Positions 1,101 through 48,780 of a stretch of DNA of 64,000 nucleotides are shown one piece after another. How positions within the stretch are numbered: position 1 is the stretch's first letter; every line of letters begins with the position of its first letter. The DNA is from Planctomycetia bacterium (GTDB taxonomy: Bacteria; Planctomycetota; Planctomycetia; Pirellulales; Thermoguttaceae). The position numbers and the translations under genes are program-made. The stretch covers positions 1-64,000 of the forward strand of contig JAUNBG010000005.1 in NCBI GenBank assembly GCA_030527205.1, read 5' to 3'. The notes under the pieces are model-generated. The model ran no database searches, was not told the DNA's origin, and worked only from the letters and a program-made list of their open reading frames with translations.

Positions 1101-1213
1101 AAGGAAGTTCTAAAAACCCCGATTTTTCAACAAACGCATTTCGGATAACGTCGTTAAAACAAGTTTTTGCTGACGAGACGTCCTCGCTCCTCTGAAGGCC
1201 TTGAACTTCCCTT
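1101..1213 (+). repeat. Dispersed palindromic repeat family A, copy A1
   Basis: The copy starts AAGGAAGTTCTAA and ends with the near-complement GAACTTCCCTT. It carries the shared core with ACGCATTTCGGATAACGTCG, a GTTTTTGC block and GACGAGACGTCCTCGCTCC. It belongs to the subtype with A4 and A6. It lies between tRNA-Ala and the 3' end of the OleC-like gene. Confidence 0.85.
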
Positions 1214-1321
1214 TGTTTTCAAGTTCATTTAAAAACTAAGATCAAAAGTTGGCGAATTTGGTAAAAATAAGTTAAATGCGAAAAACGAAACTTGTTGAGC
1301 ATTCGATTTCAGTTAGACCAT

Positions 1322-3106
1322 TTATTTTGAAAATTGCTTTGCTGCCCAAACAGCAAGCTTTTCTCGATTAATTTTGGCGTTATGACGAACGTCAACAGGA
1401 AATTTTGGGCAAATTAAAACATTTTCAATCGAAGAGGTTATTGCCGAGTTTTGCAATAAACGCAAAACATTTTGAGTCAAAATATTTTGGTCGGACTTTG
1501 TTTTCGGAAAACGATCGGCAAAAGGTTCAACAATAATGACCGGTTTTAAAAAGGAACGCGATTCCGATTGGCCATTCAAAGAAAAAGAATCAGGCGTTGA
1601 ATCGTCTTGCTGTCGGACAATATCATCATTTGACTGGCTGGATTGTTTCGGCAACGTTTCAGGAATGCCAACTAAAGCAGAGCGAAAAACGTCCGAATGT
1701 TCATTGGCTATTGACTCACACGGAATCGAAAAAAGCGTTCCTTGACGCGTTTCAACCCGATGAGCTTTTCGACCACAGAACCAGAAACGGTCCAAATGAT
1801 CCAAATAGCCGACATCGCCGATTCGATGCCAAATTCGTCCGGAAGAATCGATCATTTTTGCTAAGGCGTTTGCTTCAAGTCGCGTTACATATTGTTTCGT
1901 AACTTGAGGACCAGTAACGGCCAGTTCGCCTATTTCTCCAGGCAAAAGCGGTTGAACGTCTTCCAAATGAGAAATGGGCGAATCGGTAATCGGCAAAATG
2001 AGCCATTCAATCGAATCAAAACGTTTGCCCACGCAAATTCCTGATCCTGAACGAGTTTTTTGAGCTGTTTCCGCTAATATGATTGAAGCGCAATTTGACG
2101 CAACCGGCAATGATTCCGTTGCGCCATAAGGCGTATGAATATCGCCGTCGGCTGCGATACATTCTTTAAAACGTTCCAATAAAGAAAACGGGACCGGAGC
2201 GCCAGCGATTATTGCCCGTTTCAGAGTCGTCATTTTTCGATGTTTTTCGCAACAATAGCCAACAACGCGATTCCATAAAGCAGGCGAACCAAATGATTGC
2301 GTGACCTTCCAATCTTCAACAGCTTCAAGAAACAGTTCCGGATCAACGCTGGCCGGTCTTGTCGAATCCATATCCGGAATGATTGCCGTTGTTCCCATTG
2401 CGGCATTAAAAAGTCCAAAAAAAGGAAATCCGGCCAGATCAATTTCGCCTGGTTCGATTTTATAGCGACGACTAATCTCTTCGACTTGCGTATCAAAAAT
2501 TCGATGCGTATACAAAACGCCCTTGGCTGGGCCTGTGCTTCCGCTTGTAAAAATAATCGCCGCAGGGTCATCCGCTCTCGTTTCAGTTAAAACGGCCTCG
2601 CCAAAAGGTTGCTTTCGAATTTGCGATAACGAAAGACCTCTCCAAAACCAGCGTTTTCCAACAGTCAAATTGATTTTCGCATGCGGAAACCAATGAGACA
2701 TCAAAGTCCGAACCGCCTGAACTTCCGAAATGGCAACAAATCCATCCAAATCAATTTGTCGCAAACATTTTAACATTTTCGAAATACCCATTCCGGGATC
2801 AATTAAAACCAATACAGCGCCTGCTTTATAAAGGGCAAAAACAAGAGTTATAAAATCAATTCCCTGTCGAACCATAATCGCAAGTTTCATGCCGGGAACC
2901 AATCCTTGATGACGCAAGGCAAAAGCAATACGGTTGCTGTCTTGATCCAGTTCTTTAAAGGTTATGACTCGATAAGTTCTTTTGCCATAAGGATTTCTGA
3001 CTGCCTTGCCTCTTTTGTTTATCGGTTCGGCGATCGCAATATTATTTGGAATTTTAGCTGCCATATTGACAAGTCGTTGCGCAACATTTAATTTCAAGTC
3101 GTCCAT
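1322..3106 (-). CDS. AMP-dependent acyl synthetase, OleC-like
   Basis: A 594-residue member of the adenylate-forming (ANL) family, which activates a carboxylate with ATP. The phosphate-binding motif TSGSTGPAKG lies near residues 189-198, the A5-type motif TPYGATESLP near 325-335, and the hinge region with IGDVGYLDHLDRFW near 435. The TPYGATE-LP form is typical of fatty-acid ligase-like proteins related to OleC, which closes beta-hydroxy acids to beta-lactones. That narrower assignment is inference, because no OleA, OleB or OleD partner is in the window. A polar insert rich in Ser, Asp and Gln (about residues 488-520) interrupts the C-terminal part. The start is ATG. The gene stands alone between two family A repeats. 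It could instead be an ordinary acyl-CoA ligase. Confidence 0.85.
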   Translation of the reverse strand: MDDLKLNVAQRLVNMAAKIPNNIAIAEPINKRGKAVRNPYGKRTYRVITFKELDQDSNRIAFALRHQGLVPGMKLAIMVRQGIDFITLVFALYKAGAVLVLIDPGMGISKMLKCLRQIDLDGFVAISEVQAVRTLMSHWFPHAKINLTVGKRWFWRGLSLSQIRKQPFGEAVLTETRADDPAAIIFTSGSTGPAKGVLYTHRIFDTQVEEISRRYKIEPGEIDLAGFPFFGLFNAAMGTTAIIPDMDSTRPASVDPELFLEAVEDWKVTQSFGSPALWNRVVGYCCEKHRKMTTLKRAIIAGAPVPFSLLERFKECIAADGDIHTPYGATESLPVASNCASIILAETAQKTRSGSGICVGKRFDSIEWLILPITDSPISHLEDVQPLLPGEIGELAVTGPQVTKQYVTRLEANALAKMIDSSGRIWHRIGDVGYLDHLDRFWFCGRKAHRVETRQGTLFSIPCESIANEHSDVFRSALVGIPETLPKQSSQSNDDIVRQQDDSTPDSFSLNGQSESRSFLKPVIIVEPFADRFPKTKSDQNILTQNVLRLLQNSAITSSIENVLICPKFPVDVRHNAKINREKLAVWAAKQFSK

Positions 3107-3189
3107 TTTTCGCTCAATAATTCAAATAGAGTCAATACGCTGCCATAATATTCGTCGATATTATGAGTTATGTTACATTTATATATTAT

Positions 3190-3296
3190 AAGGAAGTTTT
3201 AAAACCAGTTTTTTACAATAAACTCCATTCGGGAAACGTCGCAACCGTTTCCTGCGATGAGATGTTTGCGTTCCTAAGGGGGTTTAGAACTTCCTT
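3190..3296 (+). repeat. Dispersed palindromic repeat family A, copy A2
   Basis: Left end AAGGAAGTTTTAA pairs with right end TTTAGAACTTCCTT. The core reads TTTTTTACAATAAACTCCAT followed by a CGGGAAACGTCG block, which is the subtype shared with A3 and A5. It sits between the start of the OleC-like gene and the end of the esterase gene. Confidence 0.87.
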
Positions 3297-3312
3297 ATCG
3301 TTTCATTTATTC

Positions 3313-4266
3313 CTAATTTTCAGACCATTGTAAAAAGTCGAAAATGAGCTTTATTCTTTCTTCCCAAGGAAAAAGGTTTGCTGTATGCCCCTGAGAATTG
3401 TCAAGATAAAGTTCAGTTCGAACTCCAGCTCGATTGAGCGCTTCATAAAAAAGACAACTTTGACTTGGAATAACAGCCTGATCGCGAGTTCCCTGCAAGA
3501 TCAGGGTTGGCGAAAAATCGTTGTCGACATAAGTAATCGGCGAATATTTTCGGGCTTTTTCAATGATAGGGGCAGCTCGTTCGCTATTGGAAAGATTATT
3601 ATCTCTGCTCGCTCCCAGAACGCTATAAACCGGTTCCGGAGTCTGCTCCGGGGAACGTTCAAGATAAAAGGCCATATCCGCAGTGCAGCAGAGATCAATG
3701 ACAATTTGAACTTGCGACGATTGTTCAAGATTTTCGCCGACATCAAAAAGTCGGAATTTATCGGAAATGCCAAGCATTGAGGCCATATGCCCGCCGGATG
3801 ACGTTCCATAGGCGGCAATACGATTTGGATCGATTCCGTATTCCTTCGCATGGGCTCGCAAAAAACGGACTGCGGCTTTGATGTCTTCTATTTGAGCAGG
3901 AAAAATACAGTCCGGCGCCACGCTTCGATGGGCAACGCTTGCAACGGCAAAGCCTCGCTCAACGCTTTTGCAAGCCCGCCAAAATCCGCCGTCGCCTGGA
4001 CCTGGGCTGTTCCAGCCGCCGCTGACAATATCAATCAATAACGGAGCATTTGAAATCGGCTCTCCTTCCGCAGTCGGCAAAAAGAGATTCAACTTAATTT
4101 CCTGACCTTGCGCAACTTTATAAACAATATTATTGATTTCTTTTGTTGCGTAAGGCTTCTTTTCGACGTCATTCTGAGCAAAGGTTTTTGTTGAAAGAAT
4201 TAATGCCGCAGCAAGGATCAACCAGACAGTCAAAAGAAATATCCCATTTTTAATATAGAAGCGCAT
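3313..4266 (-). CDS. Secreted alpha/beta-hydrolase (esterase)
   Basis: A 317-residue alpha/beta-hydrolase of the BD-FAE/carboxylesterase type, with an N-terminal signal peptide (hydrophobic residues about 9-25, then TKTFAQN), so it probably acts outside the inner membrane. The nucleophile elbow GTSSGG places the catalytic Ser near residue 155. Asp in GTRDQAV (about 259) and His in QGHTANLF (about 294) complete the triad. A glycine-rich oxyanion loop (VSGGWNSPGPGDGG) lies near residue 80. The ATG start is preceded by an AAAGGG ribosome site. The substrate is unknown; sugar-ester or xylan de-esterification would fit the family. It is separated from the upstream synthetase gene by repeat A2. Confidence 0.88.
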   Translation of the reverse strand: MRFYIKNGIFLLTVWLILAAALILSTKTFAQNDVEKKPYATKEINNIVYKVAQGQEIKLNLFLPTAEGEPISNAPLLIDIVSGGWNSPGPGDGGFWRACKSVERGFAVASVAHRSVAPDCIFPAQIEDIKAAVRFLRAHAKEYGIDPNRIAAYGTSSGGHMASMLGISDKFRLFDVGENLEQSSQVQIVIDLCCTADMAFYLERSPEQTPEPVYSVLGASRDNNLSNSERAAPIIEKARKYSPITYVDNDFSPTLILQGTRDQAVIPSQSCLFYEALNRAGVRTELYLDNSQGHTANLFPWEERIKLIFDFLQWSEN

Positions 4267-4404
4267 TTTTAAACCCTTTCTGTTTTAATCCATATAATTC
4301 GACTCCTGGCTTCGCGTTCTTTTTTTGACCCATTCAGAAATCCTTAACGTTTTTAGCAATGATAACCGGGAAGATTATTATAGCAAAATTGATATTTTTA
4401 AATA

Positions 4405-4516
4405 GATTTCAAAATCGAAGTCATTATGAGCAACAGGCTTTATTTTCAAAAGTTTGCTCATTGACCGCTGACCTGCGAACCCAAAGATCTGGAATTTTCA
4501 ACAGGTTTGAGTATAA
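4405..4516 (-). repeat. Dispersed repeat family B, copy B1
   Basis: Read on the minus strand it opens TTATACTCAAACCTGTTGAA, has the middle block TTTGGGTTCGCAGGTCAG, and ends with AAAGCCTGTTGCTC...GACTTCGATTTTG. All three blocks occur in the same order in B5 (10010-10120). It fills the gap between the esterase and cutA. Confidence 0.75.
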
Positions 4517-4600
4517 TGTTTATAAAGACAAAAGTCAATCGAATCGCAGAAAAGTTCAGTTTTTTTGATTTTTAATGAGAGTCAACATTTTTATTGAGAA

Positions 4601-4954
4601 TCAACGATTCTGGTTTCTCTTTATTTCGGCTTCGATATAATCAATCTGATTATCAAGCCAACTTTCATAATCTCGAGAAATATATTCGATTGGTAAAGCG
4701 ACAATTTGCGGACATTCATAAGAATGAGCCTTATTAATTTCTTCAGAAAGCATATTAAAATACGAAGCTCTTGTTTTGGCTAAAAGGAGAAACTCTTCGT
4801 CGTTTTCGAGCTTTTCTTTCCAATAATAAAAACTTTGAATAGGGCCAATAATTTGAACGCAAGCAACTTTATGACTTTCAACTAAACGTTTCGCGATCTT
4901 TTCGGCTTCGTTTTTATTCGGAAATGTAATTTGGAATTGAATAAAGTTGCTCAT
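4601..4954 (-). CDS. cutA: CutA1-like divalent cation tolerance protein
   Basis: A 117-residue CutA1 homologue, about the usual length. Family marks are ACVQI near residue 31, the FYYWKEKLENDEEFLL stretch (W-x(n)-E), the LLAKT strand, and HSYECPQIVALPI, where the conserved His/Tyr/Glu/Pro lie. CutA proteins are trimeric ferredoxin-like folds linked to metal tolerance, but their biochemical role is unsettled. It follows the TPR gene after 20 bp on the same strand, so the two are probably co-transcribed. Confidence 0.95.
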   Translation of the reverse strand: MSNFIQFQITFPNKNEAEKIAKRLVESHKVACVQIIGPIQSFYYWKEKLENDEEFLLLAKTRASYFNMLSEEINKAHSYECPQIVALPIEYISRDYESWLDNQIDYIEAEIKRNQNR

Positions 4955-4974
4955 AACAATAAACTAATCAAAAA

Positions 4975-5493
4975 TCAGGACGCAATCGTTTGAACAGTTT
5001 GAATAAAGTCGGGATCATTTCTTAACGAATCGAAATCGGGCACACTTTTAATAAGTTTGCCAATATTTCGATCCAGATCAACGGCAGTCGATAATTCTTC
5101 AAGGGTTCGATATTTGTAGCCCAATAAAGAATAATAACAGGCAAGGTTGAAATGATGAATACCGGAATTGGGTTCCAATTCCAATGCCCGTTTCATTGAA
5201 AGAGCCGCTTTGTCAAATTGACCAAGGTTTTTATAACAGGACGCAATCAGACTATGTAACAAAGCAAACTCTTTTTTGCGATTCAATTCGCGAAAGCAAA
5301 TAATAGCAGATTGAAATAAATGCAATTGTCGCAAAGCCTCTCCTTTTAAAAGGAGAAGTCTGGGATAACGACGAATCGTTTTATCGTCGAGGCGAGTTAA
5401 AGTTGAAATGGCTAATTTAGGAAGACCAAGTTCGAGATATCCTTCTGCTTCTCGACACAATTTATACAATCGAATATGTTTAATGGATTTCAT
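4975..5493 (-). CDS. TPR-repeat protein
   Basis: A 172-residue soluble protein built of tetratricopeptide helices. Recognisable units include a FQSAIICFRELNRKKEFALL segment and the better-preserved GQFDKAALSMKRALELEPNS (about residues 92-111), followed by a HHFNLACYYSLLG helix. No signal peptide or catalytic domain is visible. TPRs mediate protein-protein contact, and the partner is unknown. It is the first gene of a likely two-gene unit with cutA. Confidence 0.8.
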   Translation of the reverse strand: MKSIKHIRLYKLCREAEGYLELGLPKLAISTLTRLDDKTIRRYPRLLLLKGEALRQLHLFQSAIICFRELNRKKEFALLHSLIASCYKNLGQFDKAALSMKRALELEPNSGIHHFNLACYYSLLGYKYRTLEELSTAVDLDRNIGKLIKSVPDFDSLRNDPDFIQTVQTIAS

Positions 5494-5585
5494 AATTATT
5501 TGACCTTTTCACATTATGAATTTTATACATGAAGGAAAAAGGGCAAAGGGGGGATTTATTTTTTTTGACTTTTTTTTTTCATGGG

Positions 5586-5690
5586 TTATACTCAAACCTA
5601 TAAAAAGTCTTGGATTTTGGAGACACAATGCCGATAACGACGACGAATCGCGGAACGACGAAACCTGTCACGCATTCTAGGTTCAGTTTA
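5586..5690 (+). repeat. Dispersed repeat family B, copy B2
   Basis: Opens TTATACTCAAACCTATAAAA and ends with CGAAACCTGT...TAGGTTCAGTTT, which can pair as a short hairpin (AACCT/AGGTT). It is followed about 30 bp later by family A copy A3 in the same orientation, as seen again at B5-A4. Confidence 0.7.
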
Positions 5691-5720
5691 ATTATGATTT
5701 TTATTGCCGATATCAGTTTT

Positions 5721-5831
5721 GGGGATTCTAAAAACCTGTTTTTTACAATAAACTCTATTCGGAAAATGACGCGAAAACCGTTCATGCGGACGAGACGTTC
5801 GCGCTCCCTGCGGGTTTTTAGGACTTCCTTT
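5721..5831 (+). repeat. Dispersed palindromic repeat family A, copy A3
   Basis: The left end is degenerate (GGGGATTCTAAAAACC) and the right end reads TTTAGGACTTCCTTT. The core TTTTTTACAATAAACTCTAT with the following TTCGG and GCGGACGAGACGTTCGCGC matches A2 and A5. It lies in the leader of the glycosyltransferase gene. Confidence 0.82.
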
Positions 5832-5944
5832 TTCAATCATTGCGGAATATTGCAGAATATTGATGTTCGCAACTTTTGAAACAGAACATTCCTTTCAAGA
5901 ATATCCGATATTTTGGGTTTTCTTTTTTTGATGAAGTTATTTTG

Positions 5945-7669
5945 ATGAAACAATATTTTAAAACAAAAAGTTTATGGTTTCTCTTATTGATTTTTGCGCT
6001 ATTCATTCGAATTATGGCAGCCCTTGCCTGGGAACAACATTTTGAGCTTTCTGATTATTCTTGCATTGAAAATCAAAAAGGCATTGATGATCAAAAACCG
6101 TTTTTTTTTGGCGACAGCGATTCTTATTGGACGCTTGGTCGCGCTTTGGCTTTTAGCCGTCCTTATCAACACGGAAAAGAAAACTGGACCATTTTTCGAA
6201 TGCCCGGATATCCCCTTTTATTAATGCCGTTGTTCTGGTTTGGCGGAGAGAATCCGCCTCTCTTTTGGGCAAGATTAGAAAATGCTTTTTGCGGAATGTT
6301 GACTGTCGCTTTGGTTGGTTGTTTGGGATTTCTTCTGTTTCGGGATCAGCGAATAGCTTTGCTTGCCGCCTTTTTTGCTGCCGTTGATCCTTGTTCAATC
6401 GTTGAAAGCATTCTTGTTTTGGCTGAAGAACCTTTTGTTGTTACAATGTTGCTGCAATTAATCTGCTTTGTTGTCCTTTTTTATAAAATCGACGAAAATA
6501 ATGGAACAAAAATCTTGTTGTCAAACAAATTTTTATTGCGTCCCTTTTGGTCAATTGCCTTTTGGACGTCAGCTCTTGGTTTGACGTCTGCTTTGACTGT
6601 TTATTTCAGACCGGATTGGTTCTATTTTATGCCGTTTGTTTTTCTCTTTATGTTCGTCTATTTATTGAGCGATCAGTTTAAAACTTCTTCAAAAAACAGA
6701 TCGAAAAAGCGAGAATTGATTTCCTCAAAAACTGCGCAAAAAACTGTTTTTTATCGAACAAATCGATTAGAACCATTTTTGAAATCGGAAAAAAAAGGAC
6801 TTTTCTCTGTTTGGAGACAAATTCGTTATAAAAGAATGATTTGCGTTGTCATTGGCGCAACGGTTGTTTTTTGGACTGCGCTGTTGCCTTGGATATTGCG
6901 AAATGAACGTTTAACCGGACGTTTTATTCCAACAACGCTTCAAATGGGAGCAAGTCTTTATGACGGACTCAATCCGAATGCGGACGGATCAAGCAATATG
7001 AATTTTGTCGAGCAATTTCGATTAATGGAACAAAAATATCCTTCCGATGATCCTTCCGTTCATTTTGAGGTTCGACTTGATCGACGCTTTAAAAAAGCTG
7101 CTTGGGAATGGATTCGCGAAAATCCGCAAAAAGTTTTGGAGTTAGCTGTTATCAAATTTTTGCGACTTTGGAATTTTGTCCCAAATGAACCCGCTTTTTC
7201 TTCGACGCCAATTCGAATCGTTCTTTTAATAACTTATTTGCCTTTACTAATTTTAGGGATAATCGGCGCTTGGGGGACATTAGGGTTAAGATCAGAACGC
7301 CCTTGGGATTCTGTTGAATCAGATTGTCAGATCATTCAACCCAACGACGCTCAGGACAAAAATGAATGTTCAAACCTTTTAAAAAGCTCGAAATCTGTAT
7401 TTGTAAGCTCAGAAACAACAAGCGGATTAAGGAAGGCAAAGTCTGTTGCCCCAGTCAGTTTCGATATAAATCGTTTTCAATATCAAGGGGGATTTCCTTA
7501 TTGGCTTCTCTGGCTTCCCGCTCTTTATATAACGTTGCTTCATATCATTTTCGTTAGCTCGATTCGATATCGAACGCCAGCAATGTTTGGAATAATGATT
7601 CTTGCTGCGGCAACGATAATTTTTGGAGTTGACTATTACAGAACAAAAATATTGCAATCGAAACAATAA
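5945..7669 (+). CDS. Membrane glycosyltransferase, GT-C fold (GT39/ArnT-like)
   Basis: A polytopic inner-membrane protein of about 574 residues, using the ATG at 5945. An in-frame TTG at 5876 would add 23 residues but overlaps the end of the repeat region. The first membrane helix is followed by a periplasmic loop with DSDSYWTLGRAL (about residues 57-68), the acidic motif expected for polyprenyl-phosphate-sugar transferases, and then FRMPGYPLLLMP. Multiple hydrophobic helices follow, with two long polar loops. The second loop (about residues 474-510) is encoded by a copy of repeat family B (7366-7475). The donor and acceptor cannot be told from sequence. No partner gene is adjacent. Confidence 0.82.
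   Translation: MKQYFKTKSLWFLLLIFALFIRIMAALAWEQHFELSDYSCIENQKGIDDQKPFFFGDSDSYWTLGRALAFSRPYQHGKENWTIFRMPGYPLLLMPLFWFGGENPPLFWARLENAFCGMLTVALVGCLGFLLFRDQRIALLAAFFAAVDPCSIVESILVLAEEPFVVTMLLQLICFVVLFYKIDENNGTKILLSNKFLLRPFWSIAFWTSALGLTSALTVYFRPDWFYFMPFVFLFMFVYLLSDQFKTSSKNRSKKRELISSKTAQKTVFYRTNRLEPFLKSEKKGLFSVWRQIRYKRMICVVIGATVVFWTALLPWILRNERLTGRFIPTTLQMGASLYDGLNPNADGSSNMNFVEQFRLMEQKYPSDDPSVHFEVRLDRRFKKAAWEWIRENPQKVLELAVIKFLRLWNFVPNEPAFSSTPIRIVLLITYLPLLILGIIGAWGTLGLRSERPWDSVESDCQIIQPNDAQDKNECSNLLKSSKSVFVSSETTSGLRKAKSVAPVSFDINRFQYQGGFPYWLLWLPALYITLLHIIFVSSIRYRTPAMFGIMILAAATIIFGVDYYRTKILQSKQ
7366..7475 (+). repeat. Repeat family B, copy B3, inside a coding sequence
   Basis: The stretch opens TGTTCAAACCTTTTAAAAAG, continues with CGGATTAAGGAAGGCAAAG, and closes with TCTGTTGCC...AGTTTCGATAT. 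This matches intergenic copy B5 block by block. It is read in frame without a stop and supplies a polar loop between two membrane helices of the glycosyltransferase. Confidence 0.65.
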
Positions 7670-10120: not shown

Positions 10121-10147
10121 AATAGAATCTTCAATGATTTATTCTTT

Positions 10148-10257
10148 AAGGAAGTTCTAAAGACCGAGATTTTTTAACAAACGCATTTCGGTTAAAGTTG
10201 TTGAAACTGGTTTTTGCGGACGAGACGGCGATCCTCTGGGAGGGTTAGAACTTCCTT
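10148..10257 (+). repeat. Dispersed palindromic repeat family A, copy A4
   Basis: Left end AAGGAAGTTCTAA and right end TTAGAACTTCCTT are perfect complements over 13 bp. The core ACAAACGCATTTCGG and GTTTTTGCGGACGAGACG match A1 and A6. It sits about 130 bp upstream of the BASS transporter. Confidence 0.9.
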
Positions 10258-10388
10258 TTATTTAATTGCAAACCAGTCCCAAGTTTTCTTAAATGTCGTT
10301 TTTTATCCCTGTCAAGAATGAACGATTGTTTTTAAAATAATCTGTTGCTTCTTTAACAAATAATTCAAATAAGTTTTAATAAATTTTT

Positions 10389-14673: not shown

Positions 14674-14806
14674 ATTGTAATCAATTATAATCAAGCCAAT
14701 TGAAAAATCAGATATTCAGGTTCGGAAATATAAAAATCGATTTTTTCAGCAAGCTTGAGCCAATTTCAGGTCAAAAAATATTTTTTTAAATTAGTTAATA
14801 TAATAA

Positions 14807-14945
14807 CTGAGTTTTCCCTGGTTTTTGAAATTGAGGAGAAAAGTTTGGAAACTTGTAATGACTGTTTTCGGGACGGGCGAAACGATTGCCTTTCGGATGG
14901 GACAGGGCGACGGTTTTTCGACTGATTTAAACGTCGTCCCTTTTT
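14807..14945 (+). ncRNA. Candidate small RNA, copy C2, ending in a terminator
   Basis: It begins with ACTGAGTTTTCCCTGGTTTT, which matches C1 at 7858, directly after a TATAAT box (14800-14805). It ends at a Rho-independent hairpin (GGGCGACG with CGTCGTCCC, then TTTTT) at 14904-14945. The span is about 140 nt with no reading frame. The hairpin could instead be the terminator of the GH38-like gene, with the element only a repeat. Confidence 0.35.
14904..14945 (+). terminator. Rho-independent terminator
   Basis: GGGCGACG (14905-14912) pairs with CGTCGTCCC (14932-14940), followed by five T. It lies 230 bp past the GH38-like gene and would stop that transcript or the candidate RNA. Confidence 0.65.
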
Positions 14946-16518: not shown

Positions 16519-17409
16519 ATGAAGCAATCATTTTGCAATGGATCAACGACTCCCCGTTGGACAGGGGAAGTTCAGGTTACTGAAAATCGAAAAATCGCAG
16601 AAAAGACTTGGAGAATTTCTCTAAAGGCTCCAGATTTTATTCCTTTGATTTCTTCGGGACAATTTGTTATGCTTCGACTTATTCAGCGGAATGATCCTCT
16701 TTTAGGTCGACCATTTGCGATTTATTCTATTGATTTGCAAACAGAAACTGTTGATATTGTCTATTTAACTGTTGGGAAAATGACGCAACAATTAACAGAA
16801 ATTCGTCCAGGCGATCGACTCGAACTTTGGGGACCGCTTGGGAATGGTTGGAACGAAATGAAAAAAAGTTGGACGCGTTCAAATTGTCCGGAACATTTAA
16901 TTATGGTCGCAGGGGGCATTGGTCAGACCCCTTTTTATTTATTGTCTCAGGAAATTCTGGCAGAAAATCAGAATTCGGAAAAGGCAATCAGAACTTTTCC
17001 TTCAAAATTGTCATTGTTATTTGGCGCTCAAACGAAGTCTCGATTTTCCTGTTTGGACGATTTTGAAAGATTGGGAATTGATGTTCATTTGACTACAGAG
17101 GATGGGTCGGCGGGACAAAAGGGGTTAATAACATCGATTATTCCGAATATTGTCGAAAAGTCAGGCTGTTCCGAAGCGAAAACTGTTATCGCTGCTTGCG
17201 GACCTCATCCTTTGTTGAAAGCGGTTGCTTTATTGGCTCAGAATCAAAAAATGGAATGCTGGACTTCTTTGGAATCATCAATGGCCTGCGGACTAGGAAT
17301 CTGTTTTAGTTGCGTCATCAAATATCGAGATGATCAAGGTCAATGGGATTATCGACGAACTTGCGTCGATGGGCCTGTTTTTAACGCCGCTCGACTTTGT
17401 TGGGATTAG
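16519..17409 (+). CDS. pyrK: Dihydroorotate dehydrogenase electron-transfer subunit
   Basis: A ferredoxin-reductase-type flavoprotein of 296 residues. GRPFAIYSID is the FAD-binding motif, MVAGGIGQTPFYLL the NAD-binding loop, and ACGPHPLLKAV follows. The C-terminus holds the 2Fe-2S ligands C257, C262, C265 and C282 (CGLGICFSC...RRTC), the PyrK arrangement. It passes electrons between PyrD and NAD in pyrimidine synthesis. The ATG at 16519 is chosen because it has GGGCGAAAA upstream and opens right at the domain; a TTG 54 bp earlier is less likely. pyrD is not adjacent, so a related reductase remains possible. Confidence 0.85.
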   Translation: MKQSFCNGSTTPRWTGEVQVTENRKIAEKTWRISLKAPDFIPLISSGQFVMLRLIQRNDPLLGRPFAIYSIDLQTETVDIVYLTVGKMTQQLTEIRPGDRLELWGPLGNGWNEMKKSWTRSNCPEHLIMVAGGIGQTPFYLLSQEILAENQNSEKAIRTFPSKLSLLFGAQTKSRFSCLDDFERLGIDVHLTTEDGSAGQKGLITSIIPNIVEKSGCSEAKTVIAACGPHPLLKAVALLAQNQKMECWTSLESSMACGLGICFSCVIKYRDDQGQWDYRRTCVDGPVFNAARLCWD

Positions 17410-17666
17410 AGTTGCTCGCGCTGTTGCCGCCTTAAGAATTCGATATTTCAATTGACTTGAGTTCAAGATTATTTTGATAAGCCTTAAATTCAATATTGCT
17501 TTTGAAAACATTAAAATCAAACAAAATCATACAACCGGACAAAATTTTCAGACTTTCGCAACTTTTTTGCGAGGAATCTTTTCTTATGTTAAAATTTACA
17601 TTATAATAAAAACAGGAAGAATAAGGCTGATAAATATTTTGGGTAAAATTTGCCGAAAGGAATATT

Positions 17667-37029: not shown

Positions 37030-37033
37030 CAGT

Positions 37034-37141
37034 CAGAAGTTCTAAAAACCTGTTTTTTGTAATAAACTCCATTCGGAAAACGTCGCGAAAACCAGTTTCT
37101 GCGGGCGAGACATCCTCGCTCTCAGGGGGTTAGGACTTTCT
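37034..37141 (+). repeat. Dispersed palindromic repeat family A, copy A5
   Basis: Left end AGAAGTTCTAAAAACC and right end TTAGGACTTTCTC are imperfect complements. The core TTTGTAATAAACTCCATTCG and GCGGGCGAGACATCCTCGC match A2 and A3. It is inserted between the skp-like gene and lpxC, five bases after the skp-like stop codon. Confidence 0.85.
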
Positions 37142-42827: not shown

Positions 42828-42840
42828 AACTATTTGGATT

Positions 42841-42951: not shown

Positions 42952-43744
42952 ATACAAAGATTTAATGGTTCCTGAAGAGTTATTGGAAAACTCAATTGCA
43001 AAAAGAATAACGAATATTTCGATTAAGAAATCATTGTTGCTTATTTATTATATAATGTATCTTTTAATATTTGAAGGCAAACATAAATATTTTAATCGAT
43101 TTAATAAAAAAAGAATTTATCGATATGCTAATATTAACGCTTATTTAAAATGAGTAAAATACAATCAATGAAAGTTATATGCTATCTTGGGGATATGGGC
43201 TATCCTTTCCGATCCCTTGATTTTTAGTAAAATGGATTTTTCTCAAAAGAAAGATATTATTGAATGTAACGATCAGCAAGAATTGACCGGCGGAGAAAAC
43301 AAAATTTTGCAAACAAACCAAAATCGTCATAAAAACTGTATTTGCGGCATAATCGGCAATAAAGTCATACTGGATACAATAAGGTTCGAATCTTCTTCGA
43401 AATGTGTCAAATGGTTACTTTTTTCTTTTGAAGTTTTTTGAACAAGTCGATTGAACGGATAAATAAATAAAAAAGTTGATAAACAATTTATCCTGAACAA
43501 ATTTCTGAAGCGTCAACATTGGAATTGATATGGAGAATTCTCAATTCGTTGCGTTGTTCGTATTTTGTTCGATAAATAATAAAACTGTCAAAACCTGATT
43601 CAAAACAAAATATAAACTGATGACAAATTGAATTCAGCGATAAGAAAATCATCAAAATACATAAAATATTGAAAATGAGCTGATTTTATATTTTAGGAAA
43701 TCAGGGGAAGGGACACATTTTGCAGAAATAATAGGGATAAAAGC
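42952..43744. other. Intergenic region upstream of csrA
   Basis: About 790 AT-rich bases without a supported gene. Two small frames (42929-43153 and 43187-43441) lack ribosome sites and protein-like composition. The csrA ATG at 43745 has TAGGGA upstream. The length suggests regulatory leader sequence, but no specific site was recognised. Confidence 0.45.
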
Positions 43745-43990
43745 ATGTTAGTATTATCAAGATATAAGGACCAAAGCATTTATATCGGCGATGATATTGT
43801 TATAACTGTCGTCGACGTTCGAGGCGATCGCATTCGTTTGGGAATCGAAGCGCCTTCCGACGTTCCAGTTCATCGTCAGGAAATTTATGAAGCGATAAAA
43901 AAAGAAGAAGAGCTTGTTCAATGCGTTGCAAAAGATACGGCTGATAATTCTGTGGAAAATCAATACGAATTGAGTTTTCACAATTTCTAA
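43745..43990 (+). CDS. csrA: Carbon storage regulator CsrA
   Basis: An 81-residue RNA-binding regulator. MLVLSR opens the first strand, IRLGIEAPSDVPVHRQEIYEAI gives the conserved core, and R44-type residues at the VHR motif contact GGA sites in mRNA leaders. The dimer changes translation and stability of target mRNAs. The C-terminal 25 residues are longer than in E. coli CsrA (61 residues) and unrelated to it. In many bacteria csrA sits beside flagellar fliW; that gene is not here. It converges on the kinase gene, with a shared hairpin between them. Confidence 0.97.
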   Translation: MLVLSRYKDQSIYIGDDIVITVVDVRGDRIRLGIEAPSDVPVHRQEIYEAIKKEEELVQCVAKDTADNSVENQYELSFHNF

Positions 43991-43991
43991 G

Positions 43992-44080
43992 AGCGCATTT
44001 TTTCTTCTTGATCCGCGAATAGGACGGCTTGGGATTGCTGATAAATGACAAGCCTTTTTTCGCGGATTTTTTATGCGCAT
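43992..44080. terminator. Bidirectional hairpin between csrA and the kinase gene
   Basis: ATCCGCGAA (44011-44019) pairs perfectly with TTCGCGGAT (44059-44067), and GCGCA (43993-43997) with TGCGC (44074-44078). T-runs lie on both sides. It can end transcripts from csrA and from the opposing kinase gene, whose stop codon lies inside it. Confidence 0.7.
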
Positions 44081-45171
44081 TGACGCAGCTCTTCTTGATT
44101 GGGCGAGCGGGGAAAGGTTTGCATTTCCAATTTATTTAGCGCGGTTAAGATTTCATTTGTTGTTTGAGGACGTCTTTCTTTTTTCCTGGCGGTTAATTGT
44201 TGAAGCAATTGAATTGCTTGAGGCGAAACGCAAAGTCGATTCAAATCGTTTTCGATACAACATTTCATTGTTTCATATTTGCGATAAAGGTCATTCCAGG
44301 AAAAAACGTTAAAATGGGATTTTCCTGTCAGCATTTCAAAAATAATGATCCCCAAGCTATAGAAATCGCTTGTTATATCGGGCGGAGCGGATTCCAATAA
44401 TTGTTCCGGAGCGAGATAAAACGGCGTTCCCGAGAACGTTTTGTCATTAACATTACAAGCAATCGGATTATTTGACTGGAAACAATAATCTTTGTTAAAA
44501 GGATCATTATTCTTGCTGGCGAATCCAAAATCAATTAACGTCACATGTCCTGTCGGGGAAACAAAAATATTGCCCGGTTTTAAATCATTATGAGACCAAC
44601 CTTGTCGATTTAATGCGTCGAGCGCTTTGACTGTTTGTCGCGCTATTTTCCAAACGGTTCGCTGATCAATTCGTTTTTTTTGGGTCAATTGTTCTTGAAT
44701 TGTTTGACCTTCGAGCCAGGGAGTAATAAAATAACCGGGCCAATAAGCAATATTATCAAAACAATCGGAATTATTTTGTTGAATATTATTCATTTCGTTG
44801 GAACAATTCAATAAAATGGAGTTCTCGTTGATTTCCTGAGGAACGATAGCTTCCGATTTCCAATATTGAATTCGAGATTGACGATAATCAAGAACAGGAA
44901 GAATATGCGGGCAAAAAACAGATTGTCCCAAACAAATTTCGTTACGAAGAATTCTTTCGCCGAGTTCGGTTCCCTGCCATTTCTTTTGAAGCGTTTTAAA
45001 CGCATAGGACGCATTGATATTTCGATTTTTGGGACGAGCTTGATAAACGGACAAAAACGACCCATCAATTCGTTTGCCGACCAATTCCCAATGATTGTTT
45101 GATATTGATTCGGATAAAAAGTCATTGGAAAATGAATGATCCTGTAAGCTGGAAGCGATAAGCGATAACAT
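44071..45171 (-). CDS. Ser/Thr protein kinase
   Basis: A 366-residue Hanks-type kinase without a membrane helix or PASTA repeats, so cytoplasmic. K59 (YAFKTL) is the ATP-binding lysine. SHNDLKPGN (near 193-201) is the catalytic loop, with Asn in place of the Arg of HRD. IDFGFAS is the DFG motif, GTPFYLAPEQL the P+1/APE region, and SDFYSLGIIIFEMLTG helix F. An Asn/Ser-rich insert lies at about 110-145. The non-RD loop means it may not depend on activation-loop phosphorylation. Targets are unknown. It converges on csrA; no functional link can be shown. Confidence 0.93.
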   Translation of the reverse strand: MLSLIASSLQDHSFSNDFLSESISNNHWELVGKRIDGSFLSVYQARPKNRNINASYAFKTLQKKWQGTELGERILRNEICLGQSVFCPHILPVLDYRQSRIQYWKSEAIVPQEINENSILLNCSNEMNNIQQNNSDCFDNIAYWPGYFITPWLEGQTIQEQLTQKKRIDQRTVWKIARQTVKALDALNRQGWSHNDLKPGNIFVSPTGHVTLIDFGFASKNNDPFNKDYCFQSNNPIACNVNDKTFSGTPFYLAPEQLLESAPPDITSDFYSLGIIIFEMLTGKSHFNVFSWNDLYRKYETMKCCIENDLNRLCVSPQAIQLLQQLTARKKERRPQTTNEILTALNKLEMQTFPRSPNQEELRQCA

Positions 45172-45357
45172 GATGCCGATCTTTCGTCGATTTAGAATAA
45201 ATCCGTGAAAAGTTCATGAACGATAACTCATTCATATATTCTTGTCCAATCTCAAAATCGTATCTTTCGATATATTTTTCCGAGTCTCAACAAGTTCTCT
45301 ATAAAGAAAAGTCGGCAAGTCCAAGAGGAATAATTAGCAAAACCGTTAAAATCGGGC

Positions 45358-45420
45358 GTTATTTTTGAAAATAAAGACGCATTCCGAGGTTTTCCGAATG
45401 CGTCTCCTTATAAAAATAAC
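45358..45420. promoter_or_regulatory. Two-tier hairpin upstream of the kinase gene
   Basis: GTTATTTTT (45358-45366) is the exact complement of AAAAATAAC (45412-45420). Nested inside, GACGCATTC (45376-45384) is the exact complement of GAATGCGTC (45396-45404). The structure lies about 190 bp before the kinase start and about 300 bp past the end of the small lipoprotein gene. It could be the terminator for the lipoprotein transcript or a leader structure of the kinase mRNA. Confidence 0.6.
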
Positions 45421-45719
45421 ATTTATATTGTTTTGGACAAAAACAATATGCGCATCAATAAACATAATACAGATTGATTTTATGTTAATGGCTCTTTATT
45501 TCCTGACTGTTCGCAAGATTCTCATTTCTCAATATTATTTCATTATTTCCTTTTCTTACAAATTGATTAACGCAAAGATCAAGGAAAATAATTTGCATAT
45601 ATTGAACCCCAGCAACAAAAAAACTCAGCTTCAGCAATTTGCGCATTGTCGGGGTTACGAAAAGAAAGCGACTATTTAAAAAAGTTCAAAAAAGGCTTTT
45701 TCAAATAAAAAATATCTCG

Positions 45720-46013
45720 TTATGAACCGATACCGGGATAATTTGCTGTCATGCCGCCTCCTGTCGAACAAGGGTCACAGGGATTGGCGCAAGCCGGCGT
45801 ACAAGGATTACATTGATTCATTGGGGATGAATAAATAACTTGTTCAACAGGCGCGCTGACCGGAAACTCCGCAATGGACGATCCGGACATACCGGATGAA
45901 ACCGTTGGAACGCGAGACCCATTATTTCTAAAACAGGATGACATGCTGCTGCAACCGGTTGCAACCAATGCCGCGATCAACAATAATGCGGACAAAATGA
46001 AAATCTTTTTCAT
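45720..46013 (-). CDS. Small cysteine-rich lipoprotein
   Basis: A 97-residue protein. A clear lipoprotein signal (KKIFILSALLLIAALVATGC) ends in the lipobox ATGC, so the mature protein of about 77 residues is lipid-anchored. The mature part contains a cluster NPCTPACANPCDPC that could form disulphides or bind metal, and otherwise Ser/Gly-rich text. GGAGA upstream supports the ATG. Function unknown. Such short lipoproteins are easily missed, but signal, lipobox and ribosome site agree. Confidence 0.8.
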   Translation of the reverse strand: MKKIFILSALLLIAALVATGCSSMSSCFRNNGSRVPTVSSGMSGSSIAEFPVSAPVEQVIYSSPMNQCNPCTPACANPCDPCSTGGGMTANYPGIGS

Positions 46014-46660
46014 CGAAACGTCTCCATTGATTTGAATATATTCGTTTATTTAATATTCAATATTTTAAGAACAAATGAATTTTCTGTTTTGAAACAGAGA
46101 ATTCCGTTGAGTTTCAGGCGAATTTCATTCCTTTGCCGCATGAATGGCAATCAACGGCAAGAGTTCAGAAAAACATTGCAAACAAACCGACATAATAAAT
46201 AAAAAAGCTGATCTGTTGTTTGAGATTTTCTCCCTCGAAAACAACAAACTAATTTTATATAGTTTACTTTAGCAATTGCTTTTTGCAAATAAAAATAATT
46301 TCATTTAAATTAATAAAACATTGTTTTTATTAAATTTAATCGATTAAATCAATAAGACAGACAGACTTTTTCTGGAAAGAAAATTCAATACAAAAGAGCC
46401 AGACGTTTCTGCCGTTATAATCGTCCTAGAAAAGTCTTTTGTGTTTACCCATTTTGTTTCGTTGATGTATTTTGCCAAATCAGACGTTATTCTTTAAAAC
46501 ATTGACTTTTGAACAGTCCAAAACGTTGAATTTGAAACCTTGCAAACGACGGACGAATTCTGCGGACGAAACCTGAGCTTCAAACTTGCTTCAAAATAAT
46601 TCAAACCAAATTCGACCAAATTCGATTTAATAAAAAAAGAAAAAAATAAAAAAATGATAC
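46014..46660. other. Intergenic region before tRNA-Val
   Basis: About 650 AT-rich bases, with no supported gene. The text around 46560-46580 (CTGCGGACGAAACCTGAG) recalls pieces of repeats A and B but is too short to assign. Confidence 0.45.
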
Positions 46661-46690
46661 TTGACGTTTTTCATTTTTATGAGATATTAT
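46661..46690 (+). promoter_or_regulatory. Sigma-70-type promoter of tRNA-Val
   Basis: TTGACG (46661-46666) and TATTAT (46685-46690) are separated by 18 bp, and the tRNA begins 65 bp downstream. Each box has one mismatch to consensus. Confidence 0.62.
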
Positions 46691-46754
46691 ATTTTGTTGT
46701 CGAGTTGCTAACGATATAAATGTCTTGGACATTTTATTTTCAGCAATCATGATC

Positions 46755-46829
46755 GGGCAGTTAGCTCAGTTTGGTTAGAGCACTAGCTCGACAAGCTAGG
46801 GGTCACTGGTTCGAGTCCAGTACTGCCCA
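46755..46829 (+). tRNA. tRNA-Val (anticodon GAC)
   Basis: A 75-nt cloverleaf. The acceptor stem GGGCAGT pairs with ACTGCCC, with discriminator A. The anticodon stem CTAGC/GCTAG holds the loop TCGACAA, so positions 34-36 are GAC (codons GUC/GUU, valine). The T arm is ACTGG-TTCGAGT-CCAGT. No CCA is encoded. It is followed at once by a terminator. Confidence 0.96.
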
Positions 46830-46831
46830 TT

Positions 46832-46869
46832 TAAAAGGCTTTTTGAAGCGATTCAAAAAGCCTTTTTTT
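46832..46869 (+). terminator. Terminator of tRNA-Val
   Basis: AAAAGGCTTTTTGAA pairs with TTCAAAAAGCCTTTT across a short loop, followed by T residues. The stem is about 15 bp and starts three bases after the tRNA. Confidence 0.88.
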
Positions 46870-47145
46870 ATTGGTTTGAACCCGGTTTAAATAGCAAATA
46901 GATCATAGAGTCATTTCTCTATTGACTGCTTTGGACAACTTTTTTCTGGATTATGTAAAAGTTTTTATGAAAATATTTTCCGATTTTTATGAATAACGGA
47001 TTGTATTTTCAACTTTTTTATTTTGCTCGATTGTTGACCGTTTTGCCCATATTAAAAAGGAAGGTTGTTTTTAACGAGTTTGAATCAATAAAAAGAGTTT
47101 TCGAGTCGATCAAAAAGACGAATTTCTTTTGAGAAAAAAACGAAG

Positions 47146-48579
47146 TCAGAAAGAATATTGAACAACAAACTCTGTTCGAAACGTTTTTCCGTCTTTCATC
47201 GGAAGAAAAATAGGTTCTGCTCCCGAAACGTCAGCGCGTTGATATTTTGTGTGCCAATAATCGAATTCCAAACCTGTCATTAAGGCGCTGCTCCAATGAT
47301 AAATGAAGTTTGTAAAGAAAACAGAATTTTGCAATCGGGCGGAAGTAATGCCGTTGCTCGGCAGGGAAGTTCCAATTAAATCGTTTTTATTTGGCTTGTC
47401 AATTCCGTAGCCGAAATTGGTTCCCAATTTATCGCTGAGATCATAATGAATGTTGATCCAACCGCCTTGATTGCGGATTGCGTTTTGAGTGAACAGGTCA
47501 ACGCCTTGATTGATGCCGCCAGTAAAGCTGCTCAAATTTTCGCCAAAATAATATTCGCCCTGAATACGCCATTTTTTTGTCAAAGGAACGTCCAATTCAA
47601 AATTTGCCGACCAGGTTTTGATCGGTTTGGATTGAATTCGTTGATTGGCAAATGTTCCGGCGATAGGCGAAAATCCAAACGTTTGTTCTCCCCAATGTCC
47701 GGAAACAGCGGCTGTAATGGGAAGACCATTTCTTGCCTGTTCCCAAAAGCTTAATGCGAGGCGTCCTTCAATGAGAGGGGCGCCGGAAACTTTGGCACTG
47801 ACTCCGGTTGTTGCTGTATAATCGCCGACGATATTATCGACCAGAGCGATTTGGGAAAGAGTTTTGAAATTGTTGCTGAACGTCATTCCTTTATCAAATC
47901 GAATTTGAGCGCGACGATATCCCAAATTTCCAGCAAAACCGGCAGGCAGATAATTCAACATTTGGGGATACAACAACGAGATGATTTCCCAATCCTGACC
48001 GATCAGGATTTTGGTCTGCTTTTCTTTGTTGGAAAGTTCGACAAACGCTTTTCGAAGCTGAACGCCTCCCTTATTCTTGGTTCCGTTGGGAGTTCCTTCA
48101 AAGTCCGCTTCAACGACGCCGCGAATTTTCGAACCGGGAATCGATGATATTTCCGGGCCGTCAACAAAGATTCCAAGCCGGCTCATTCGCGCATCAATCG
48201 AAAAACCTGGGTCATCATCAATATCTGCAGATTGAGAATATAAGACAAATTCGCCGGGAACGGTTCGGTTTGTATCGAACGCTGTATTGACCCAAATGAA
48301 TCCGTAAGGCGTAAATGTAAAATCGCCTTTCTTCCAGGCATAAGATTTCAGCTGTTCCTCAAGTTCATCCTTTGTTACAAATGCGTTGTAACGCTGATTG
48401 ATATCCAATGGAGGCAAAGAGTCATTTTCGGTTCTGTTGAGTATTACTTCCTGGGCATTAATCGTTGAATCGTTTCCCAAAATGAACAAAAAAAACAATA
48501 AAAAAATTATTGTCAAACAAAAATATTGTTTGATCAAAATTTTGTTTTGAGTTGAAGCAACCAAAAGAAAGGAAGTCAT
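47146..48579 (-). CDS. Outer-membrane porin, DcaP-like
   Basis: A 477-residue exported beta-barrel. The signal region holds the hydrophobic stretch FCLTIIFLLFFLFILG and a cleavage site near INAQ. A helical segment, DELEEQLKSYAW, precedes the barrel. Strands alternate polar and hydrophobic residues, for example GDFTFTPYGFIWVNTAF, KIRGVVEADFEG, VQLRKAFVEL and ILIGQDWEIISLLYPQML. The chain ends in FVVQYSF, with the terminal Phe used for Bam recognition. This pattern matches DcaP-type trimeric porins that pass organic anions or peptides. It stands alone; repeat A6 lies in its leader. Confidence 0.85.
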   Translation of the reverse strand: MTSFLLVASTQNKILIKQYFCLTIIFLLFFLFILGNDSTINAQEVILNRTENDSLPPLDINQRYNAFVTKDELEEQLKSYAWKKGDFTFTPYGFIWVNTAFDTNRTVPGEFVLYSQSADIDDDPGFSIDARMSRLGIFVDGPEISSIPGSKIRGVVEADFEGTPNGTKNKGGVQLRKAFVELSNKEKQTKILIGQDWEIISLLYPQMLNYLPAGFAGNLGYRRAQIRFDKGMTFSNNFKTLSQIALVDNIVGDYTATTGVSAKVSGAPLIEGRLALSFWEQARNGLPITAAVSGHWGEQTFGFSPIAGTFANQRIQSKPIKTWSANFELDVPLTKKWRIQGEYYFGENLSSFTGGINQGVDLFTQNAIRNQGGWINIHYDLSDKLGTNFGYGIDKPNKNDLIGTSLPSNGITSARLQNSVFFTNFIYHWSSALMTGLEFDYWHTKYQRADVSGAEPIFLPMKDGKTFRTEFVVQYSF

Positions 48580-48666
48580 TTTGTTTAAATAGCCCGTTTT
48601 ATGTAAAATATATAAATTAAAAATTTTAAATAAATTGATAAAATGAAGATTAAGTCCAATTAATAA

Positions 48667-48780
48667 TTAGGAAGTTCTAAAAATCGATATTTTTTAACAA
48701 CCCCATTTCGGATAAAGTCGTTAAAACTGGTTTTTGTGGACGAAACGTCCGCGCTCCGAAGGGGGGTTAGAACTTTCTAA
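48667..48780 (+). repeat. Dispersed palindromic repeat family A, copy A6
   Basis: Left end TTAGGAAGTTCTAA pairs with right end TTAGAACTTTCTAA. The core ATTTCGGATAAAGTCGTTAA and GTGGACGAAACGTCCGCGC is the subtype of A1 and A4. It lies about 90 bp upstream of the porin start on the other strand. Confidence 0.88.

What the first reader, a model, noticed from the sequence alone, without database searches (positions are those of the whole stretch)
1101..48780. Family A: six copies of a 107-114 bp palindrome-ended repeat, all intergenic
Copies at 1101, 3190, 5721, 10148, 37034 and 48667 share ends of the form AAGGAAGTTCTAA...TTAGAACTTCCTT that pair over up to 13 bp, and a conserved core with a GCGGACGAGACG block. 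Each lies outside coding sequence, close to a gene end or leader. They fall into two core subtypes (A1/A4/A6 and A2/A3/A5). No transposase is in the window. The pattern fits a non-autonomous mobile element or a family of structured RNA/DNA hairpins.
Basis: seen in the sequence. Interest (0 to 1): 0.82.

Follow-up and report, generated by a model that had tools for sequence, protein, structure and literature searches.

The report
Hairpin-carrying IS5-type mini-transposon family
The six repeats belong to a family of about 110-letter non-coding inserts, an estimated 370-420 in this genome, that left a 4-letter duplication at their landing sites and were likely moved by an IS5-type jumping gene of the same genome; their conserved block is part of a hairpin sequence that also occurs, letter for letter, in a dozen groups of bacteria, where it is probably the repeat of a quite different transposase.

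Summary
In detail: six copies at the stated places, in two subtypes. A covariance model finds 90 matches in an 831-kb sample (21%) of the genome, so roughly 370-420 copies in all. The repeats are a MITE: A|GGAAGTTCTAAAAACC...GGTTTTTAGAACTTCC|T, usually 110 bp, flanked by a 4-bp target duplication (32 of 75 exact against 2.7 in shuffles; 56 of 75 within one mismatch against 14.5). Four of five IS5-family loci in this genome were read to their ends; every end read (4 left, 2 right) matches the MITE end within 1-2 of 17 letters. One lies on the window's own contig. Against: neither two-ended IS copy keeps a 4-bp duplication. Copies avoid ORFs (6 of 87 overlap, 79% expected), show no strand preference and no compensatory stem changes, so a maintained structured RNA is not supported. 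Three same-genus genomes lack the family; another genus has one cousin with a perfect 4-bp duplication. Unexpectedly, the GCGGACGAGACG block belongs to a 22-letter hairpin found exactly in 12 named high-level bacterial groups, often in inverted pairs and, at 4 of 30 loci read, flanking RAYT genes. It also sits in a second repeat family here. So: an IS5-type MITE carrying a cross-phylum REP-like hairpin.

The parts
1102..1211 (+). MITE copy A1, subtype I; right end worn and placed by eye
   Evidence: left TIR 17 of 17 letters
3191..3295 (+). MITE copy A2, subtype II; flanks TATA / TATC
5720..5829 (+). MITE copy A3, subtype II; flanks GTTT / TTTT
10149..10256 (+). MITE copy A4, subtype I
10145..10148 (.). 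left 4-bp target duplication of A4 (TTTA)
10257..10260 (.). right 4-bp target duplication of A4 (TTTA)
37034..37141 (+). MITE copy A5, subtype II; flanks CAGT / CGTC do not match (1 of 4)
48669..48778 (+). MITE copy A6, subtype I; flanks AATT / AATC
1169..1190 (-). embedded REP-like hairpin in A1 (20 of 22 letters of the cross-phylum 22-mer)
3253..3274 (-). worn REP-like hairpin in A2 (14 of 22 by ungapped match)
5786..5807 (-). embedded REP-like hairpin in A3 (21 of 22)
10216..10237 (-). worn REP-like hairpin in A4 (16 of 22)
37101..37122 (-). embedded REP-like hairpin in A5 (18 of 22)
48736..48757 (-). embedded REP-like hairpin in A6 (20 of 22)

Best explanation
The six repeats are members of a family of about 110-bp non-coding inserts with 17-bp terminal inverted repeats and 4-bp target duplications, and they were likely copied around this genome by the transposase of resident IS5-family elements that end in nearly the same inverted repeat. 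Shown: the element boundaries, the target duplications (targets lean to YTWWAR, with TWWA duplicated), about one copy per 9-10 kb in the sample, absence from the same-genus genomes held, and IS5-family copies with matching ends. Inferred: that this transposase, or a close relative now lost, acted in trans on the MITE ends. The right half of the element carries a second kind of module, a REP-like hairpin that in other phyla flanks RAYT (HUH/Y1) transposase genes. The likely history is that the hairpin entered the end of an ancestral IS or MITE before amplification and was then spread passively, so that one MITE burst seeded several hundred copies of it. After insertion the copies appear to decay neutrally (median 88% identity to the subtype consensus, no excess of compensatory changes); the intergenic placement would be what is left after selection against insertions in genes.
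For: 4-bp duplication: 32 of 75 exact, shuffles mean 2.7, maximum 9 in 300; 56 of 75 within one mismatch against 14.5; no other of the nine tested boundary choices gave as many exact 4-mers; seen in both subtypes, 17 of 36 and 15 of 39. Copy number: 90 matches in 830,833 bases. IS partner: intact 342-aa ORF, NCBIfam IS5 family 245 bits against cut-off 140; ends of the C75, C33, C65 and C37 copies 1-2 of 17 letters from the MITE end, 4 of 4 left and 2 of 2 right ends read; the four other DDE loci have no such end within 2 mismatches. The 17-mer within 2 mismatches is found 127 times in family copies and 9 times elsewhere in the sample, two of these being the ends of the C33 IS; 0.4 expected in a shuffled sample. 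Cousin in G011 with TATG/TATG and IS5 relatives in the same genome.
Against: Neither of the two IS copies with both ends shows a 4-bp duplication (C75 AGCA/TAAA, C33 TTAT/ATCA; read). Similarity between MITE and IS inside the inverted repeat is at best suggestive: 2-3 of 1000 shuffles for the best pair, 24 comparisons. The intact IS is on a 5.6-kb contig and the copy on the window's contig is frame-broken. Decay of the duplication does not follow decay of the inverted repeat (rho -0.13, p 0.28). No nucleotide-level empty site could be shown, as orthologues in the genus are only 42-64% identical.
Confidence: 0.88

Rival explanations
1. A MITE moved by a different, now lost DDE element whose ends resemble those of the resident IS5 copies.
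For: The two-ended IS copies lack 4-bp duplications and share little sequence inside the ends with the MITE; one intact transposase gene against several hundred MITEs.
Against: Every IS end read (4 left, 2 right) matches the MITE end within 1-2 of 17 letters. Recombination and adjacent deletion are published causes of missing duplications (PMC11708052, abstract).
Confidence: 0.15
2. A family of structured RNAs or DNA hairpins kept by selection for pairing, for example terminators or mRNA stabilisers.
For: Three copies tested fold better than shuffles (z -3.2 to -4.1) and copies lie near gene ends or starts (nearest boundary a stop in 39, a start in 33, median distance 42 nt).
Against: No excess of compensatory change in either stem, no strand preference (21 same, 22 opposite), no Rfam family in the window but two tRNAs, and clean target duplications.
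Confidence: 0.05
3. A REPIN-type element moved by a RAYT (HUH/Y1) transposase, the inner hairpin being the part that moves it.
For: The inner hairpin is REP-like and flanks RAYT genes in other phyla.
Against: Constant 4-bp target duplications and IS5-type inverted repeats; HUH single-strand transposition is not expected to duplicate its target (established knowledge). The single Y1_Tnp match of this genome is not flanked by the hairpin within 5 mismatches, and the G011 cousin has the ends and the duplication but no hairpin.
Confidence: 0.03

Closest known systems
IS5-family MITEs of Porphyromonas gingivalis, such as BrickBuilt (PMC4596501, passages seen)
   Same: MITEs whose terminal inverted repeats match resident IS5-family elements; BrickBuilt also carries a foreign-looking internal repeat (23-nt tandem repeats).
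   Different: BrickBuilt has 19 copies and target duplications that differ in length; here there are several hundred copies, a constant 4-bp duplication, and the internal module is a hairpin shared across phyla.
REP sequences and REPINs of RAYT/TnpA-REP transposases (PMC6006769 and PMC2817692, passages seen)
   Same: The inner hairpin flanks RAYT genes in inverted orientation at 4 of 30 loci read and forms 29 inverted pairs within 200 nt among 94 copies in a Blastocatellia genome. Read from the tag side, CTGGGAGCGCGGAC..., it resembles the Pseudomonas putida REP TGTGGGAGCGGGC... of PMC2817692 Table 1.
   Different: [quoted passage not shown] The foot is most often CTGG (43 of 100 matches continue GCTCC-CAG), not the published GT[AG]G. 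In the planctomycete it rides inside a MITE.
CGTC-tagged REPs (PMC3733652, abstract and passages seen)
   Same: Short dispersed palindromes; the hairpin contains CGTC.
   Different: Published CGTC families have 8-9 bp stems beginning with AT pairs and mostly a CCA tail, and are not associated with transposase genes; ours begins with G-C pairs and flanks RAYT genes.
MITEs such as RUP, NEMIS, ERIC, Nezha (named in PMC3733652, passage)
   Same: 70-300 bp, 15-30 bp terminal inverted repeats, no coding capacity, next to genes.
   Different: Not compared by sequence here; no embedded REP is mentioned for them in the passage seen.

Membership tests
MITE (bacterial, IS-derived) | short, non-coding, terminal inverted repeats of 15-30 bp | tested here: met
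   17-bp ends, 103-112 bp in 74 of 75 copies and 137 bp in one
MITE (bacterial, IS-derived) | target-site duplication of constant length | tested here: met
   4 bp, 32 of 75 exact against 2.7
MITE (bacterial, IS-derived) | many dispersed copies | tested here: met
   90 matches in 831 kb
MITE (bacterial, IS-derived) | autonomous element with matching ends | tested here: met
   IS5-family copies, ends within 1-2 of 17 letters
MITE (bacterial, IS-derived) | mobilisation in trans by that element | not testable with these tools
   needs a transposition assay
IS5 family (the partner element) | DDE transposase of the IS5 type | tested here: met
   NCBIfam NF033581 245 bits, cut-off 140; Pfam DDE_Tnp_1 and DUF772
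IS5 family (the partner element) | target duplication at the IS copies themselves | tested here: not met
   two copies with both ends, neither with a 4-bp match
REP of a RAYT system (inner hairpin) | flanks a RAYT gene in inverted orientation | tested here: met
   4 of 30 RAYT loci from 15 genomes; about 4e-6 to 4e-5 expected per locus if copies are independent. In the window's own genome and genus not met
REP of a RAYT system (inner hairpin) | GT[AG]G tetranucleotide at the foot of the hairpin | tested here: not met
   commonest foot reads CTGG (43 of 100)
REP of a RAYT system (inner hairpin) | high copy number and inverted pairs | tested here: met
   2-222 copies in 15 of 15 genomes, all chosen because they hold it; 29 inverted pairs in G041
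REP of a RAYT system (inner hairpin) | cleavage by the RAYT | not testable with these tools
   needs an in vitro assay
CGTC-tagged REP | stem beginning with AT pairs, CCA tail | tested here: not met
   hairpin begins with G-C pairs (sequence), description
structured RNA family | compensatory base changes in the stems | tested here: not met
   4 against 3.5 and 6 against 5.0 expected
structured RNA family | known Rfam family | tested here: not met
   only two tRNAs in the window reach a gathering score

The most novel reading that the evidence does not exclude
One 22-letter REP-like hairpin is shared, letter for letter, by at least a dozen bacterial phyla because it is horizontally mobile: it spreads with its own RAYT lineages and as a passenger inside unrelated DDE-type MITEs, two such repeat families in this one genome. 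It would be a cross-phylum selfish module moved by two transposition chemistries, against the published view that REPs are species-specific.
Probability: 0.42. Interest if true: 0.78.

Novelty: new variant of a known kind. Interest (0 to 1): 0.52.

Why it matters
The MITE by itself is a clear but ordinary case. What a specialist would not expect is the passenger: a REP-like hairpin identical over 22 letters in a dozen high-level bacterial groups, flanking RAYT genes in three of the genomes read and riding inside two repeat families here. It makes two open questions directly testable: how REPs cross species borders, and whether a REP spread by an IS-type MITE burst can later be used by a RAYT. 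It also gives a caution: a conserved GC-rich hairpin in many intergenic copies need not be a functional RNA.

Tried and rejected
A first alignment without turning the minus-strand copies was meaningless and was redone. Flanks were first tested for inverted complementarity, which was at shuffle level at every one of 12 positions, and then for direct repeats, which gave the 4-bp duplication. One clade for the four hairpin-flanked RAYTs was not supported (22 proteins that passed a motif filter, 3 changes, 86 of 500 shuffles as low). In relatives' RAYT loci (L227-L260) no hairpin within 5 mismatches flanks the gene on both sides except in G006 (L259), where hairpins at 4-5 mismatches surround the RAYT; single hits at 4-5 mismatches occur in L236 and L257. 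Nucleotide-level empty sites were given up.

Paper searches: the strings ADETSALP and GCGGACGAGACGTCCGC gave no paper; two shorter strings gave 32 papers, 15 listed, none of those titles about a bacterial REP or MITE, 17 not seen; RAYT + MITE + IS5 family gave one Bacillus paper (listing only); 'miniature inverted-repeat transposable' + IS5 + 'REP sequence' gave none; RAYT + REP sequences gave 11, of which I saw passages or abstracts of four (and 20-21 for PMC3733652). I claim no more than that these searches found no description of this hairpin or of a REP inside an IS5-type MITE. A precedent against full novelty: PMC2817692 (passage) infers transfer of a RAYT with its REPs from gamma- to betaproteobacteria.

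Rows dropped: of 90 model hits 88 were used (one cut by a stretch end, one antisense shadow); three of the 88 are under 40 bits. 75 of 88 had both ends readable, 87 of 88 entered, 73 of 75 the inner-hairpin test. The sample was not random: contigs C6, C71, C91, C96 and C60 were taken after one search showed copies there. Scaling by bases gives 419 copies, scaling by the whole-genome count of the core within 1 mismatch (27 of 112 in the sample) gives 365. The 42 and 120 matches are scoring caps, not counts. One search stopped with a script error after its first result and was repeated in part.
Full report
What was checked. The six copies are real and correctly placed. They align into two subtypes, and the family is much larger than the window. 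A covariance model built from 31 copies finds 90 matches at E up to 0.01 in 830,833 bases of this genome including the window; 88 were kept. Scaled to the 3.95-Mb draft this is 419 copies by bases or 365 by the share of core hairpins that fall in the sample, about 1% of the genome. The sample was not random, as most of its contigs were chosen after a first search had shown copies there. All six window copies lie on the + strand; in the sample both strands occur.

What it is. The flanks are not complementary beyond the inverted repeat, but they carry a direct repeat. Taking the element as A|GGAAG...CTTCC|T, the four bases on either side are identical in 32 of 75 copies, against a mean of 2.7 when right flanks are dealt out at random (maximum 9 in 300 shuffles), and within one mismatch in 56 of 75 against 14.5. 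None of the other eight boundary choices tested gave as many exact 4-mers. Both subtypes show it: 17 of 36 and 15 of 39 exact, 28 of 36 and 28 of 39 with at least three of four. The duplicated bases lean to T-W-W-A with C or T before and A or G after (column counts). In the window, A4 has a perfect TTTA duplication; A2, A3 and A6 match in three of four; A5 in one of four; A1's right end is too worn to place securely. A target duplication of constant length marks insertion by a transposase, so this is a MITE.

What moved it. A search with DDE_Tnp_1 found six matches in the genome, one of them on the window's own contig. That copy, C33:135625-136818, 72 kb past the window's end, is bounded by AGGAAGTTCCCAAAACC and, inverted, AGGAAGTTATCAAAACC, each two letters from the MITE end; its frame is broken. 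An intact copy on contig C75 encodes 342 aa, IS5 family by NCBIfam at 245 bits against a cut-off of 140, between AGGAAGTTCCAAAAACC and, inverted, AGGAGGTTCTCAAAACC. Two more left ends, on C65 and C37, agree. A fifth locus, a 41-residue match on C43, was not read. So every end read, 4 left and 2 right, lies within 1-2 of 17 letters of the MITE end. The four other DDE loci (L168-L171) have no such end within 2 mismatches. In the sample the 17-mer within 2 mismatches occurs 127 times in family copies and 9 times elsewhere, two of these being the ends of the IS; a shuffled sample gives 0.4.

Against this, neither IS copy with both ends has a 4-bp duplication (AGCA/TAAA and TTAT/ATCA, read). Recombination and adjacent deletion are published reasons (PMC11708052, abstract), but the point stays open. 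Inside the inverted repeat the best similarity, MITE right end against the C33/C65 left end (GACGTC.CGTCCG at nearly the same distance), is reached by 2-3 of 1000 shuffles among 24 comparisons: suggestive only.

Where it occurs. By DNA search over 40 genomes, the own included, only this one has full-length copies; three relatives gave matches of 21-35 bp. With the covariance model over 30 genomes, the own included, there is one further hit, 35.7 bits in G011, another genus of the family: a 100-bp element beginning GGGAACTTCTAAAAACC, with a perfect TATG duplication and no inner hairpin, in a genome with six matches to the IS5-family protein. The three same-genus genomes (76-92% complete) lack the family. 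The host is a planctomycete by inference: the 3,031-base stretch L031 of the same-genus genome G001 lies inside a public record titled Planctomycetia bacterium.

Gene context. With ORFs of at least 100 aa as a rough gene map, 6 of 87 copies overlap an ORF by more than 30 nt, against 79.1% of random placements (binomial p about 1e-47). Between codirectional genes 21 copies point the same way as the genes and 22 the opposite; 18 are in divergent and 11 in convergent gaps, 9 at stretch edges. Background gaps are 226 codirectional, 68 divergent and 63 convergent. This is what purging of insertions from genes would leave; it gives no sign of a conserved regulatory use.

Structure. Three copies fold better than shuffles (z -3.2 to -4.1), as inverted ends must, but across copies the stems decay independently: 4 compensatory cells against 3.5 expected in the terminal stem, 6 against 5.0 in the inner hairpin. 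No Rfam family other than tRNA reaches its gathering score in the window.

The passenger. By record titles, counted by hand and the list, they come from Acidobacteriota including Blastocatellia (40), Obscuribacterales (14), Bacteroidota (9), alpha-, beta- and gammaproteobacteria (6), Verrucomicrobia (5), Omnitrophota (3), Synergistales/Synergistaceae (3), Planctomycetes (3), Chloroflexi (2), delta/Desulfobacterales (2), Lentisphaeria (1), Hydrogenedentes (1) and one unnamed: 12 named groups. Many stretches come from a few repeat-rich genomes.

In 15 such genomes, chosen because they hold it, the slightly degenerate form occurs 2 to 222 times and the pattern read backwards never. In the Blastocatellia genome 29 neighbouring pairs of its 94 copies lie within 200 nt, all in the same inverted arrangement, 28 of them with starts 56-118 nt apart, which is the REPIN layout. 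Because RAYT transposases are thought to move such repeats, I searched these genomes for the Y1 domain: 14 of 15 have it, against 5 of 14 named control genomes. At 4 of 30 RAYT loci read (Obscuribacterales once, Reyranella twice, Methylumidiphilus once) the hairpin, some copies with 1-3 mismatches, stands on both sides of the gene in inverted orientation. From the whole-genome counts 4e-6 to 4e-5 would be expected per locus if copies were independent. The four ORFs carry [ND]HxH and Y[IV]xxNP motifs but are not one clade in a tree of 22 proteins. At 26 of 30 loci the gene is not so flanked. The hairpin is thus REP-like. Its commonest foot reads CTGG (43 of 100 matches) rather than the published GT[AG]G, so I do not file it as a canonical REP. 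[quoted passage not shown] this one is.

In this genome the hairpin looks like a passenger. Of 101 hits within four mismatches in the sample, 88 are in family A. Of the other 13, nine lie in a second repeat family of about 150 bp that looks unrelated outside the hairpin (two of the nine only half align), one in a 66-bp shortened relative of family A, and three look like chance (by eye). The single Y1_Tnp match of this genome lies on contig C98, 48% GC against 40% in the window, has no such hairpin nearby and may be foreign to the bin. Same-genus G001 and G003 hold 6 and 7 cores within one mismatch, G002 none. The simplest history is that the hairpin entered the end of an ancestral element before amplification. 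Why two families hold it is unexplained and is the most interesting thread.

Verdict. An IS5-type MITE family (confidence 0.88), a new variant of a known kind because of the embedded cross-phylum REP-like hairpin. That the hairpin is horizontally mobile is likely but not shown.

Noticed in passing
L126:2565, L126:12975, L129:2732, L131:1199, L135:12852, L147:17211, L150:16882, L152:9203, L158:11305 (core positions): A second dispersed repeat family of about 150 bp (GTTTTGTGAATGTTATAAATAGACGTCGGTTG ... CAACCGATAAATAGAAATTTAACAGAG) carries the same GCGGACGAGACG hairpin plus another hairpin, AGAGTCGGGACAACTCT.
   Followed up: partly
L165 / L261 (G000:C98, around 17365-17592): The only Y1_Tnp (RAYT-like) match of this genome lies in a long open frame with a DNA-methylase-like part and in-frame palindromic repeats reading EHSCS/QECSRS; the contig is 48% GC and may be foreign to the bin.
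   Followed up: partly
window:7840-7901 and 14788-14849: Another short repeat (TTCCCTGGTTTTTGA...GAGAAGAAAAA). Upstream flanks of several family-A copies (L159:13629, L133:320, L156:362, L129:14278) hold a similar-looking AAA.C.GGGGAAAG.ACAG stretch, so the two families may lie side by side.
   Followed up: no
L259 (G006:C166): A RAYT of the same family as the host is surrounded by six hairpins of the form GCCGGCG[AG]GACGCCGGCG, 4-5 letters from the cross-phylum hairpin: a related REP-like set.
   Followed up: no
window:22900-29600: Imperfect short repeats rich in GACGACGATAATGA-like units recur here, probably coding for an aspartate/asparagine-rich protein; not examined.
   Followed up: no
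G012 (21 matches): A same-family genome holds many pieces of IS5-family transposase genes, two of them preceded by GRCAACTTCTAAAAACC, a variant of the same end (L183, L186).
   Followed up: partly
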